Shown: one piece after another, positions 17,218-32,503 of the stretch
How positions within the stretch are numbered: the stretch's first letter is position 1
How the letters are laid out: each line of letters starts with the position of its first letter
Assembly: GCF_009695655.1 (NCBI RefSeq)
Contig: NZ_VUNM01000003.1
Coordinates: forward strand, 1-64,000
Length of the DNA: 64,000 bases
DNA from: Sharpea porci
GTDB taxonomy: Bacteria; Bacillota_I; Bacilli_A; Erysipelotrichales; Coprobacillaceae
Direction: 5' to 3'
Program-made: the position numbers and the translations under genes
Notes under the pieces: generated by a model
Told to the model about the DNA's origin: nothing
Database searches by the model: none
Seen by the model: the letters and a program-made list of their open reading frames with translations, nothing else

Positions 17218-17385
17218 GCGTAAAAAAACACCTTGCTTCAAGGTGCTTTAAGAATTGTGGGTTATAAATTTGTGGCGAAAAAACCACATGCTTGCGTGTG
17301 GGATGAAAGCCGCTTTTCTTTGACTTGCTAAACACATAGAACAGGTATATAATCTATGTATAATATAAACACAGAAAGGAAGTAT

Positions 17386-17751
17386 ATGTTTACTTTAAAA
17401 TGTGAATATTGTGGTTTTGAGCAAGTAATCAAAAAGCGAATAGATAAATATACATACTACGAATTAACACATTGCAAGCATTTGTGGTGTCCTTGCAATA
17501 AATGCAAAAAGGAACATCCAAGACCAAGGCAATTAGAAAAAGGAATGGTTAAACATGGCTGGGTGCTGGGAGAATGGGACTGCTTACTTACTGAAGAAGA
17601 TGCTGCATACGTTCAACCTCGTCAGAATTATGGAATTTGGAGCAAAATAGTAAATCCAACCATTGAAGATTGCAAAGCAATTATAAGAGCAAGAGAATTA
17701 AGAGATATAGGATTAAGGATATTACAGGAGGATTCTAATGGCAAGACCTAA
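17386..17751 (+). CDS. Cys-rich, probable zinc-binding accessory protein of the IS element
   Basis: A 121-residue protein I cannot assign to a family. It has a CEYCGF pair near the N-terminus and a second cluster, C-x4-C-x-C-x2-C (CKHLWCPCNKC, about residues 30-40), which together could bind one or two zinc ions. The rest is basic, then rich in charged residues with a helical C-terminus. The start at 17386 follows AGAAAGGA. It overlaps the next gene and lies between the element's own promoter and tnpA, so it is carried by the element. A DNA- or RNA-binding helper role is only inference. Confidence 0.65.
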   Translation: MFTLKCEYCGFEQVIKKRIDKYTYYELTHCKHLWCPCNKCKKEHPRPRQLEKGMVKHGWVLGEWDCLLTEEDAAYVQPRQNYGIWSKIVNPTIEDCKAIIRARELRDIGLRILQEDSNGKT

Positions 17752-17935
17752 GAGCGATAATGTACAAATCAATATTTCCATTCCTTCCGAATGGAAAACA
17801 GAGCTTGAAAACCTTGCGCGTATCTATTCTGTTGAGGAAGGTGAAACTATCACATTCCTTGACTTGATGCGTAGAGGTATTCAGGAAAAATATCAGTTAG
17901 GAGAAAAAGGCAATGAGCGAAGAACAATATCATAG
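17738..17935 (+). CDS. Small ribbon-helix-helix-like protein of the IS element
   Basis: A 65-residue protein beginning MARPKSDNVQINISIPSEW. The alternating strand, then helix-turn-helix pattern (INISIPSEWKTELENLARIY) looks like an Arc/CopG-type DNA-binding fold, without a detectable close family. TACAGGAGG precedes the ATG. It overlaps the gene before it by 14 bases and tnpA by 23 bases, so expression is coupled. It may regulate the element's promoter; this is inference. Confidence 0.6.
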   Translation: MARPKSDNVQINISIPSEWKTELENLARIYSVEEGETITFLDLMRRGIQEKYQLGEKGNERRTIS

Positions 17936-18326
17936 CGCTTCGCATTGCAAGTATCTGATACAGTATCATATTATCTGGTGCCCGAAATTCAGGTTTTCAG
18001 TATTAAAGGGTAATGTAGAAGATACACTTAAACAGATACTACATAAAATCTGCGATGATTATAGCTATCATATTAAGTCACTTGAAGTAATGCCCGACCA
18101 TATACATATTTTTATAGATGTCCCACAGACTGTCGCTCCGTGCGATGTCGTAAGAACCCTTAAAAGCATCAGCGCTATTGAATTATTTAAGACATTTCCG
18201 CAATTAAAACAGTTCTATGCAAGATGCGGCGTTTTATGGTCAAGAGGATATTTTGTATCGACAGTAGGTCACATAAGCGAAGCTACGGTAATTAAGTACA
18301 TTGAGGAACAGAAAGATCATGATTGA
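17913..18326 (+). CDS. tnpA: IS200/IS605 family Y1 transposase TnpA
   Basis: A 137-residue HUH transposase that excises and inserts single-stranded element DNA. The HUH motif is intact (DHIHIF, near residue 64) and the catalytic tyrosine is in VIKYIEEQ near the C-terminus. Length and the YHIIWCPKFRF start are typical. It overlaps both neighbours, consistent with a single polycistronic transcript. It appears functional. Confidence 0.92.
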   Translation: MSEEQYHSASHCKYLIQYHIIWCPKFRFSVLKGNVEDTLKQILHKICDDYSYHIKSLEVMPDHIHIFIDVPQTVAPCDVVRTLKSISAIELFKTFPQLKQFYARCGVLWSRGYFVSTVGHISEATVIKYIEEQKDHD

Positions 18327-19929
18327 TGAAGAGTACAATAAGATTCTGAAACAATATCATAAACTATCTGGCAGGCATATTTTAGTTGCTGAGACCGATA
18401 TGCCTTATTCCGATGTGCTAAAAGTCGTGGCTCTTTCTGATAAAATTCGTAAAGCAGGCAATGAACTTGTAGGTATTATGAGAAAGAATTATGACCAGCT
18501 TCTGCGTACAAAAAGATATCGCAAACTGCTATCTTTATATGGTAATACAGAAGGCAAGGATAAACGTAAGATGCTTGCCAATCAACTCAATGAGATGCAG
18601 AAATCTTATGATGTAACATGGGATTATTGCAGAAAGTCCATGATTCCGATAGGCAAGAAATATGGAATAGATGCTGTATTTGCCTTGACTAAAGCCGAAG
18701 ATGTATGGCGCGGTATCGAAAAATGTTTATACGATAATGGCAAAATTATTCATTTTTCAAAATATGGAGAACTGCCTTGTATCAGAGCAAAACAGATAAA
18801 TCGTGGCATTCCAATGTCTGTTAAAAATGGCAAACTGCAATTCAAGCTTGGTAAGACCGTCTTTGGGATACAGATAAATGACAGATTCCAACAGGATGAA
18901 GTAAATTCGGTTCTATCATATCTTGCTGAACCTGAGATTACGGATAACAAGGCGGTCAACACTCTCATAGAAGATGCTTGCTGCATAGATACATACAGAC
19001 CTTGCTACGTTACGCTTGTTCCAAAAATGATAAGAGGTAAATACAGAGTGTATCTCCATCTTACTATCGAGGGCAGAGCAAAGCCCAAATATGATAAGCA
19101 TGGCAATCCTCGTCACGAGTATGGCAAAGGGATGATAGGTGCCGATATTGGAACACAGACGGTTGCTTACACATCTGATACGGAAGTCGGTCTGAAGAAT
19201 CTATCAGAGCGTGGTAATAGTATTCGGACTTCCGAAAGAAAAGAGCGACTGCTCTATCGTGCTATGGACAGGTCGAGACGAGCAGCTAATCCTCAAAATT
19301 ATAATGATGATGGCACTGTTAAGAAAGGTCGCAAGACTTGGAAGCATTCAAACCATTACAAGAAGTTAAAAGCAAAACATTCTGAATTATGCCGTATCAA
19401 TGCTGTAAACAGGCAACTTGCAATCAATGAAGACGCTAATCACCTGCGAAGTCTTGGAGATACATTCGTCACAGAGCCTAAAAATGCAAGCAAACTCATG
19501 AAACGAGCTAAAGAAACCGCTAAAAACGATAAAGGCAAGTTCAACAAGAAAAAGCGGTTTGGCAAATCCATAAAGAACCGATGTCCATCTGGATTCCAAA
19601 CAACGGTGGAAAAGAAATTCAAAGTAACAGGCGGCACATATATAGAAGTACCAAACAATTATAGAGCCTCACAGTACGACCATACGGTTGATGACTATAT
19701 CAAAAAGAAACTATCTGACCGATTGTATAAGCTACAGGATGGTACTGAGGTACAAAGGGATTGGTATTCATCATTCCTGCTCTATTGTTACAATTATAAG
19801 ACGCAAGATATAGATAAAAATAAATGCATTACAGAATTTGATGATTGCTACAAGAAAGAAAAAGCTCTAATCACATGGATTAAGGCTCATAAAATTAAAG
19901 TATTAAACAGCGGGATTAAAATAGCTTAA
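18319..19929 (+). CDS. tnpB: Large divergent TnpB-like RuvC nuclease lacking the zinc ribbon
   Basis: A 536-residue protein of the TnpB (IS605 OrfB) family, larger than the usual 350-420. The RuvC triad appears intact: D276 in IGADIGTQ, E386 in FVTEPKNAS, D481 in VQRDWYSS. The segment that normally holds the four zinc-binding cysteines (between E386 and D481) keeps the S-Q before it (ASQYDH) but has no CXXC pairs. The N-terminal 270 residues (WED/REC-equivalent) are long. The start at 18319 overlaps tnpA by 8 bases. TnpB proteins are RNA-guided DNA nucleases using an RNA from the element's right end; activity of this variant is unproven. Confidence 0.8.
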   Translation: MIDEEYNKILKQYHKLSGRHILVAETDMPYSDVLKVVALSDKIRKAGNELVGIMRKNYDQLLRTKRYRKLLSLYGNTEGKDKRKMLANQLNEMQKSYDVTWDYCRKSMIPIGKKYGIDAVFALTKAEDVWRGIEKCLYDNGKIIHFSKYGELPCIRAKQINRGIPMSVKNGKLQFKLGKTVFGIQINDRFQQDEVNSVLSYLAEPEITDNKAVNTLIEDACCIDTYRPCYVTLVPKMIRGKYRVYLHLTIEGRAKPKYDKHGNPRHEYGKGMIGADIGTQTVAYTSDTEVGLKNLSERGNSIRTSERKERLLYRAMDRSRRAANPQNYNDDGTVKKGRKTWKHSNHYKKLKAKHSELCRINAVNRQLAINEDANHLRSLGDTFVTEPKNASKLMKRAKETAKNDKGKFNKKKRFGKSIKNRCPSGFQTTVEKKFKVTGGTYIEVPNNYRASQYDHTVDDYIKKKLSDRLYKLQDGTEVQRDWYSSFLLYCYNYKTQDIDKNKCITEFDDCYKKEKALITWIKAHKIKVLNSGIKIA

Positions 19930-20123
19930 TAACTTAATAATAAGGGAGATTGACTGTACTTCCTTGCTGAAAAGCAGAAATTTACCGCTAATGTGGTCGT
20001 TGGGCTGCTTGGTAATGAAAGTTCTGATTCAAATAGATTTACACTTGTAACTCCAAAGTCTGAGAATGATGTACGATTACAAGCTACACTTGGCAATCAG
20101 AACCCCACGGGCTTGCCCGTGGG
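19930..20123 (+). ncRNA. Putative omegaRNA/right-end region of the IS element
   Basis: A non-coding stretch between the tnpB stop and the right-end hairpin (20104-20123). In IS605 elements this part, with the 3' end of tnpB, gives the guide scaffold; the guide would be the flanking DNA just beyond about 20128. Boundaries are inferred from family knowledge. Confidence 0.5.
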
Positions 20124-20948
20124 AGCAGTCAGGATTGTATTCTTATTATGATGATTTTTAGCATAATGCTTAGAGTAAATCATCGCATAAAGTGTATTGA
20201 GGATGTAGTCAAAAGCTATTTGTGAGTAGAAGGTTCCAATGGAATCAGAGCTTCTTTCTAAATCTTCAATAAGAATGTACTCATCTGCATAGTCCATAAG
20301 CTTTGAATTACGATGGGCAGTGATGGCAAGAATCTTTGTATTTTTCTTTTTAAGAATCGACAAATATTCTTTAAACCCCTCACCTGAATAACTAATAAAC
20401 AGAGCACAGTCATCTTTTGAAGCATATTTTGCGTAAGGCAATGGGTCGGATAAATAATTCACATCAAGCATATGTTTACCAAGCTTAATCATCTTATTCG
20501 CAAAGCTCTGTCCCCTTATTTCCGAGTCGCCAATTGAATAGAAGTAGATCAGATGCGCCTCATCAAGCAAGGCTGTCATGCGCTCAAGGGCGTGTCTGTC
20601 CAGCTCCTGATAACAATGATCGATGGTTGCTTGAGTAAGATTGGCCATCTTGTGGGCAATTGTTTGTGCCGACTCAGTGGAATCAATGGGATAGTTGAAA
20701 TCAACATAGCTTTGTTGATGGCGGGCTTTTTCAAGCTCCTGGACAAAAGTTAAACGAAAGTCTTTGTAGCCATCAATACCAATACGCTTACAAAAACGTA
20801 TGATTGAGGCATTGGATGAATAGGTTGCCTTGGCAAGATCATTGATGGATAATGTCGCAATCTCCTCTTGATGTTCTAGAATGTAATTGGCAATCTCCTG
20901 TTCACTGTTTGAGAAAGAGGTTGTCTTGATCTTATGTAATATACTCAT
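20097..20948 (-). CDS. RpiR family sugar-responsive regulator with IS-derived C-terminus
   Basis: A 283-residue regulator with an N-terminal HTH_6 domain (residues 1-77, including ATYSSNASIIRFCKRIG) and a SIS sugar-phosphate-binding domain (about 105-245, with YFYSIGDSEIRG and ALFISYSGEG). The start at 20948 follows AGGTGAT; a longer frame begins at 20993 without one. The last ten residues (TAPTGKPVGF) and the stop are encoded by the right end of the IS element, so the native C-terminus was replaced. It is divergent from the UPF0303/dehydrogenase operon, which it probably controls. Confidence 0.88.
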   Translation of the reverse strand: MSILHKIKTTSFSNSEQEIANYILEHQEEIATLSINDLAKATYSSNASIIRFCKRIGIDGYKDFRLTFVQELEKARHQQSYVDFNYPIDSTESAQTIAHKMANLTQATIDHCYQELDRHALERMTALLDEAHLIYFYSIGDSEIRGQSFANKMIKLGKHMLDVNYLSDPLPYAKYASKDDCALFISYSGEGFKEYLSILKKKNTKILAITAHRNSKLMDYADEYILIEDLERSSDSIGTFYSQIAFDYILNTLYAMIYSKHYAKNHHNKNTILTAPTGKPVGF

Positions 20949-31363: not shown

Positions 31364-32503
31364 ATGGAACAGATGACTATAACAGCAAAAGTCCAAATAG
31401 TTGCTGCCGATGCTGAAAAGGTTTTGCTGGATAAAACCATGTCTGTCTATCGTGATGCCTGTAATTATGTTTCAAGCTATGTATTCCAGTCTCACGATTT
31501 AAAACAGTTTTCGCTGAACAAGGCTTTATATTCTGTTCTGAGAAAAAAGTTTGGTCTTAAATCACAAATGGCTCAGTCTGTTTTTAAGACAGTTATTGCG
31601 AGATATAAAACCATTCTTGAAAATCAGAAGGAGTGGATAAAACCTTCGTTCAAGAAACCACAGTATGATTTGGTCTGGAACAGGGATTATTCTTTAACGC
31701 AGAACTGCTTCTCTGTGAATACTCTTGACGGCCGTGTTAAACTTCAATATTTCGCTGAAGGCATGTCTAAATATTTTGACCATACGATATACAGGTTTGG
31801 CACAGCCAGGCTTGTAAATAAGCATGGGAAATATTATCTTCACATACCTGTAATTTTTGATGTCGAAGAAAGCAATATTTCTGACATCTGCAATGTTGTA
31901 GGCATTGACAGAGGCATTAATTTTGTTGTCGCTACTTATGACAGTAATCATAAGTCTGGATTCGTCAGCGGTAAGGCCATCAAGCAGAAACGAGCTAACT
32001 ATTCCAAGCTTCGTAAAGAACTTCAGATGCGTCAGACTCCATCTTCAAGACGAAGAATTAAAGCTATTGGTCAGCGAGAAAACCGTTGGATGCAAGATAT
32101 TAACCATCAGGTATCAAAGGCACTCGTTGAGAACAGCCCAAAGCATACACTCTTTGTGTTGGAAGATTTGTCAGGTATCCGTAATGCTACAGAACGTGTC
32201 AGAACAAAAGACCGTTATGTTTCCGTATCGTGGTCGTTCTATGACTTAGAACAGAAACTCATTTACAAAGCAAAACAAAATCAATCTTCTGTAATTAAAG
32301 TGGACCCTCGATATACGAGTCAGTGTTGTCCAATATGTGGACATACTGAAAAATCTAATCGCAATAAGAAGATACATTTGTTTACTTGTAAAAATTGTGG
32401 CTATAAATCCAATGATGACCGCATAGGAGCTATGAATCTGTATCGTATGGGAATAAACTATCTTGCTGATAGCCAAGTACCTAATACAGTTGTAACAGAG
32501 TAA
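31364..32503 (+). CDS. tnpB: TnpB RNA-guided nuclease (IS605 OrfB), intact
   Basis: A 379-residue protein of ordinary TnpB size. RuvC residues are D182 (GIDRGIN), E267 (FVLEDLSG) and D352 (DDRIGAMN); the zinc ribbon C322-x2-C325 ... C342-x2-C345 is complete. The ATG follows AAAGGAG. Nothing suggests decay, in contrast with its tnpA partner. TnpB proteins cut DNA next to a short target-adjacent motif using right-end RNA as guide. It lies about 0.9 kb upstream of the opp operon. Confidence 0.92.
   Translation: MEQMTITAKVQIVAADAEKVLLDKTMSVYRDACNYVSSYVFQSHDLKQFSLNKALYSVLRKKFGLKSQMAQSVFKTVIARYKTILENQKEWIKPSFKKPQYDLVWNRDYSLTQNCFSVNTLDGRVKLQYFAEGMSKYFDHTIYRFGTARLVNKHGKYYLHIPVIFDVEESNISDICNVVGIDRGINFVVATYDSNHKSGFVSGKAIKQKRANYSKLRKELQMRQTPSSRRRIKAIGQRENRWMQDINHQVSKALVENSPKHTLFVLEDLSGIRNATERVRTKDRYVSVSWSFYDLEQKLIYKAKQNQSSVIKVDPRYTSQCCPICGHTEKSNRNKKIHLFTCKNCGYKSNDDRIGAMNLYRMGINYLADSQVPNTVVTE

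What the first reader, a model, noticed from the sequence alone, without database searches (positions are those of the whole stretch)
17386..20123. Four-gene IS605 element with a zinc-ribbon-less, oversized TnpB
The TnpB-like protein (536 residues) keeps a RuvC D/E/D triad (D276, E386, D481) but lacks the four cysteines that normally sit between the second and third catalytic residues. It is encoded as the last of four overlapping genes with a Cys-rich protein and a small ribbon-helix-helix-like protein upstream of tnpA, an arrangement I do not know from standard IS200/IS605 elements. The Cys-rich protein might supply in trans the zinc module that TnpB has lost (speculative). This is a candidate for a distinct RNA-guided system.
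Basis: partly seen in the sequence, partly recalled or inferred. Interest (0 to 1): 0.75.

Follow-up and report, generated by a model that had tools for sequence, protein, structure and literature searches.

The report
IS605 element with zinc-free TnpB
This is a mobile DNA element of a known kind (IS200/IS605) whose RNA-guided DNA-cutting protein has lost the zinc-binding ribbon that such proteins usually carry, and whose extra 'cysteine-rich' gene is one of several exchangeable passengers rather than a replacement for that ribbon.

Summary
Window 17267-20132 is an IS200/IS605-type element: TAM-like GTTATA, left-end hairpin, promoter, [Cys-rich gene], small RHH-like gene, tnpA, 536-aa tnpB, then a 203-nt structured right end closing on ...AGCAGTCAG. 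TnpB keeps the D276/E386/D481 triad, invariant in 44 relatives, and folds like TnpB/Cas12f, but has no C4 ribbon and no other conserved Cys cluster. It belongs to a well-supported clade of long TnpBs in several phyla in which the ribbon was lost repeatedly; sisters keep it on the same KK-LSxR scaffold. The right-end RNA has strong covariation (24 compensatory pairs; 97% of cells paired, 32-47% when slid), as expected of an omegaRNA. The RHH-like gene is in 39 of 45 close relatives. The Cys-rich gene is in 5 of 45; others carry unrelated small genes at that spot or none, although all lack the ribbon. So zinc supplied in trans is not supported. Best reading: a ribbon-less TnpB variant, a probable self-regulator, and a passenger slot just behind the promoter. 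New variant of a known kind.

The parts
17261..17266 (+). Target / TAM-like hexamer GTTATA directly left of the element
   Evidence: GTTATA in 30 of 31 left junctions, GATATA in one, with unrelated DNA further left
17267..17315 (+). Left end with subterminal hairpin CCACATGC-TT-GCGTGTGG (17284-17301), flanked by a second short complementary pair
   Evidence: same hairpin with compensating changes in the other copies
17334..17359 (+). Perfect 7-bp inverted repeat ACATAGA-N12-TCTATGT over the TATAAT box: candidate operator for the RHH-like protein (inference)
   Evidence: only match in the window, 0.04 expected by chance; recognisable in about half of the copies, with a compensated form in L030
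17386..17751 (+). Cys-rich 121-aa protein: exchangeable passenger gene
   Evidence: in 5 of 45 close copies; dN/dS 0.08-0.12
17738..17935 (+). 65-aa RHH-like protein, probable autoregulator
   Evidence: in 39 of 45 close copies, dN/dS 0.05-0.13; fold model of low confidence
17913..18326 (+). tnpA, Y1 HUH transposase
   Evidence: Pfam/NCBIfam; aligned with solved IS200-type TnpA structures 2ec2 and 2vhg
18319..19929 (+). tnpB, 536 aa, RuvC triad D276/E386/D481, no C4 ribbon; residues 450-481 replace it
19930..20132 (+). Right-end structured RNA (candidate omegaRNA scaffold); outer stem 19950-19957 with 20125-20132; the guide would be the flank from 20133 on
   Evidence: folding z -3.5; 24 of 48 pairs with compensatory changes
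20104..20123 (+). Right-end hairpin CCCACGGG-CTTG-CCCGTGGG
   Evidence: helix 11 of the covariation count

Best explanation
An IS200/IS605-family element. TnpA (a Y1 HUH enzyme) excises and inserts it as a single strand 3' of GTTATA, using the left and right hairpins. TnpB binds the structured right-end RNA (19930-20132), whose 3' extension into the flank at 20133 on acts as the guide, and cuts the empty donor site next to GTTATA, so that repair copies the element back and it is not lost. The target-nucleic-acid-binding part of TnpB works without zinc: the small beta module (453-479) is kept, with the cysteines replaced by a Q-Y-D-H...KKxLSxR core. The RHH-like protein represses the element's own promoter through ACATAGA-N12-TCTATGT. 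The Cys-rich gene is a passenger in a slot between that promoter and the rhh gene. Shown here: gene content, triad, ribbon loss, predicted fold, covarying RNA, shared junctions, passenger exchange. Inferred: nuclease activity, guide use, repression, passenger function.
For: Family of TnpA. TnpB: PHROG transposase family E 7e-19; its clade matches guided_TnpB in 34 of 44 members; profile to PDB 9j09 E 1.3e-8; AlphaFold2 model pLDDT 88.5 matching Cas12f 8j3r, ISFba1 TnpB 8iaz and ISDra2 TnpB 8h1j at E 1e-14 to 1e-12. Triad invariant. Purifying selection, dN/dS about 0.04-0.07. RNA. Junctions: GTTATA in 30 of 31 left junctions, 53 right ends closing on AGTCAG. Mobility: four copies in the own genome, copies in Lachnospiraceae, Butyrivibrio, Kandleria and Spirochaetes, tnpA-less copies at different sites in Bullifex. 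Passenger slot.
Against: No expression or cleavage data. The window TnpB alone meets no Pfam or NCBIfam model, and its TM-scores to solved structures are moderate (0.44-0.54 on its own length). No clean empty site was found, so the last base at the left end is not fixed. The RHH fold rests on sequence pattern and a low-confidence model; the operator is only partly conserved.
Confidence: 0.82

Rival explanations
1. The Cys-rich protein supplies in trans the zinc module that TnpB has lost.
For: The protein has a plausible metal-binding set (CxxC, CxxxxCxC, CxxC), is under purifying selection and is encoded in the same operon.
Against: Present in 5 of 45 close copies, while all lack the ribbon; no homologue in 295 relatives outside the element copies of the own genome, 2 weak ones in 299 Lachnospiraceae-type genomes without a neighbouring tnpB in the fetched stretch; replaced by unrelated genes in the same slot; not seen next to the wider ribbon-less clade.
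Confidence: 0.03
2. TnpB here is a catalytically impaired regulator (TldR-like) rather than a nuclease; ribbon loss is a sign of exaptation.
For: Loss of the ribbon removes part of the target-binding module.
Against: The triad is invariant in 44 diverse members, selection is strong, the gene stays inside mobile copies with tnpA and a covarying right-end RNA.
Confidence: 0.06
3. The small upstream protein is not an autorepressor but an accessory of TnpA or TnpB (for example a DNA-binding helper).
For: Tight linkage to tnpA-tnpB of this subclade (39 of 45); overlap with tnpA.
Against: The RHH-like pattern and an inverted repeat over the -10 box fit autoregulation.
Confidence: 0.25
4. The element is a decayed relic and the structures are leftovers.
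For: Several copies have broken tnpA or lack the left end (C14, C38, C24).
Against: The window copy has all genes open and both ends; low dN/dS; a 98% identical copy elsewhere in the genome.
Confidence: 0.1

Closest known systems
TnpB of ISDra2 / ISFba1 (IS200/IS605)
   Same: Fold, RuvC D/E/D triad, position behind tnpA, structured right-end RNA ending at the element's edge, target motif at the left end
   Different: No C4 zinc ribbon; 536 aa instead of about 380-410; about 12% sequence identity in structure matches
ISCbt1-type elements (annotated in a C. difficile phage, L096) and PHROG 506 transposases
   Same: Same ribbon-less long-TnpB clade
   Different: Two-gene layout or tnpB alone; no RHH-like gene; about 32% identity
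Ribbon-bearing sisters, e.g. Acidithiobacillus caldus pLAtc1 TnpB (L092) and Pontibacillus (L235)
   Same: Same clade, same KK-LSxRW and QRDLYSA-type motifs
   Different: Keep a CxC...CxC or CxxC ribbon
Cas12f, Cas12n, C2c8 (type V)
   Same: Related RuvC effector fold or profile
   Different: CRISPR-linked; here the guide RNA would come from the transposon end

Membership tests
IS200/IS605 family element | Y1 HUH TnpA | tested here: met
IS200/IS605 family element | Subterminal hairpins at both ends | tested here: met
IS200/IS605 family element | Insertion 3' of a fixed short target | tested here: met
   GTTATA at 30 of 31 left junctions
IS200/IS605 family element | No target duplication, shown by an empty site | tested here: inconclusive
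   joined flanks found no intact empty site
TnpB | RuvC D/E/D triad and TnpB/Cas12f fold | tested here: met
TnpB | C4 zinc ribbon between RuvC-II and RuvC-III (motif called strictly conserved in PMC3627910; said of 'many' TnpBs in PMC10711439) | tested here: not met
   lost repeatedly within one TnpB clade, so it is filed as a ribbon-less variant nested in TnpB, not as a standard member
TnpB | Right-end RNA with conserved structure | tested here: met
TnpB | RNA-guided DNA cleavage | not testable with these tools
   needs biochemistry
Ribbon-helix-helix regulator | beta-alpha-alpha dimer fold | tested here: inconclusive
   two helices at 17-34 and 40-51, pLDDT 63, no strand in the monomer; no PDB match

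The most novel reading that the evidence does not exclude
A lineage of active RNA-guided nucleases that has replaced the zinc ribbon by a metal-free module several times, inside an IS605 element that also evolved its own repressor and a one-gene passenger slot through which small genes are swapped and carried.
Probability: 0.3. Interest if true: 0.65.

Novelty: new variant of a known kind. Interest (0 to 1): 0.45.

Why it matters
The C4 ribbon has been described as strictly conserved in TnpB. A clade in which ribbon-bearing and ribbon-less members sit side by side on the same scaffold allows a direct test of what the ribbon does in TnpB and Cas12, and could yield zinc-free compact nucleases with a ready right-end RNA and a defined target motif. 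The passenger slot suggests that even minimal IS605 elements can carry exchangeable genes.

Tried and rejected
Zinc in trans: rejected on distribution. A zinc site elsewhere in TnpB: none. tRNA as cargo in L018: it looked tRNA-like by eye, but ARAGORN found none and Rfam gave only sub-threshold matches, the best to HEARO. Rfam on the window element: no match. Empty-site search: only the two flanks themselves and paralogous glucosidase genes. Cys protein in phages, plasmids, viral contigs: none. Pfam Transpos_assoc for the Cys protein, E 0.003 and below the cut-off: a lead, not a finding. RHH fold by AlphaFold2: too weak to use. Two large TnpB/Cas12 surveys (2021, 2023) were not held, so earlier notice of this clade there cannot be excluded; searches of the held papers for TnpB with passenger or cargo genes, zinc ribbon or ribbon-helix-helix found nothing that describes it.

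Full report
Anatomy. The element runs from about 17267 to 20132. Its left junction is GTTATA (17261-17266), the same hexamer as in 30 of 31 left junctions examined, with unrelated DNA further left. A hairpin (17284-17301) and a promoter with a perfect ACATAGA-N12-TCTATGT repeat over the -10 box follow. Then come a Cys-rich ORF (17386-17751), a 65-aa RHH-like ORF (17738-17935), tnpA (17913-18326) and tnpB (18319-19929). The right end is a 203-nt non-coding stretch closing on AGCAGTCAG; the same closing AGTCAG was found in 53 distinct right ends.

TnpA is an ordinary Y1 HUH transposase. TnpB has no Pfam or NCBIfam match on its own but matches PHROG 506 transposases. A 44-member alignment finds a solved type V effector by sequence (9j09, E 1.3e-8), 34 of the 44 members match guided_TnpB, and the AlphaFold2 model (pLDDT 88.5) matches Cas12f and TnpB structures. 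D276, E386 and D481 are invariant.

The ribbon. No CxxC occurs in the protein. The place of the ribbon reads SQYDHTVDDYIKKKLSDRLYKLQDGTEVQRD; ribbon-bearing sisters read SQTCHCGQTKKKKLSDRWHRCECGIVAQRD (L235) or SQSCHCGDVVKKPLSQRWHDCSCGAHAQRD (L092). In a 39-row tree the long TnpBs form one clade (100/98), with ribbon-bearing and ribbon-less members mixed; well-supported branches force at least 3 changes of state, and the shortest count is 5. The four-cysteine pattern is shared with all canonical TnpBs used, so repeated loss is the natural reading. The model keeps short strands at 453-479, that is, the module without its metal. Among the most conserved residues there are S451, Q452, H455, K463 and R468.

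The RNA. The right end folds better than shuffles (z -3.5). On 37 sequences, 97.3% of cells pair against 32-47% when the partners are slid, and 24 pairs show compensatory changes against 0-6. The outer stem closes at the last base of the element, which would leave the flank as the guide, as in ISDra2 (PMC8612924).

The upstream genes. Of 45 distinct close relatives (after removing six re-fetched duplicates from the table), 39 have the RHH-like gene and 38 a tnpA match. The Cys-rich gene is in 5 (window, L002, L020, L021, L031; the script looked only 900 bases up and so missed two of them). The same slot holds a 191-aa gene (L016, L019, L022, L035), a 151-aa gene (L042, L103, L104) or its 38-aa remnants (L010, L017, L033, L043), a 47-49-aa Cys-containing gene (L029, L034), or nothing (L011, L027, L038, L046, L065, L105 and others). 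Relatives of the 151-aa protein occur on lactobacillus and enterococcus plasmids, in the one inspected away from any IS605 gene. The Cys-rich gene is under purifying selection, so it does something, but not something that ribbon-less TnpB needs. The wider ribbon-less clade shows no RHH-like gene in front of tnpA.

Mobility. The own genome holds four close copies; closely related elements occur in Lachnospiraceae, Butyrivibrio, Kandleria, Anaerobutyricum and the spirochaete Bullifex. In Bullifex three insertions share one deletion that removes tnpA and joins the start of rhh to tnpB, beside a copy with tnpA, which suggests movement in trans.

Verdict. Ribbon-less TnpB in an IS200/IS605 element, with a probable self-regulator and a passenger slot. 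It works like TnpB (inference from triad, fold and RNA) and is nested in TnpB, but fails the C4-ribbon criterion of the older motif (PMC3627910); another survey says only that many TnpBs carry it (PMC10711439).

Noticed in passing
window 31364-32503: A second, canonical TnpB with a full C4 ribbon (SQCCPICG...CKNCG) lies 11 kb away.
   Followed up: partly
L023, L025, L026 (Bullifex porci): Three insertions share one deletion; in L023 rhh codons 1-37 are fused in frame to tnpB (573 aa), tnpA being gone; a copy with tnpA is present in L040.
   Followed up: partly
L016, L019, L022, L029, L034, L035, L042, L103, L104: Unrelated small genes occupy the slot between promoter and rhh; none has a known function.
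   Followed up: partly
L018:3100-3254: Sub-threshold HEARO (IscB-type RNA) match (32 bits, cut-off 83) overlapping the left end of the element.
   Followed up: no
L016, L018, L019 right ends: An extra hairpin of about 28 nt is inserted in the right-end RNA at one place, with changes on both arms that keep the pairing.
   Followed up: no
G000 C24, C14, C38 (L009, L010, L011): The other own copies are damaged: no left hairpin and a shifted end of the Cys gene in C24, broken tnpA in C14 and C38.
   Followed up: partly
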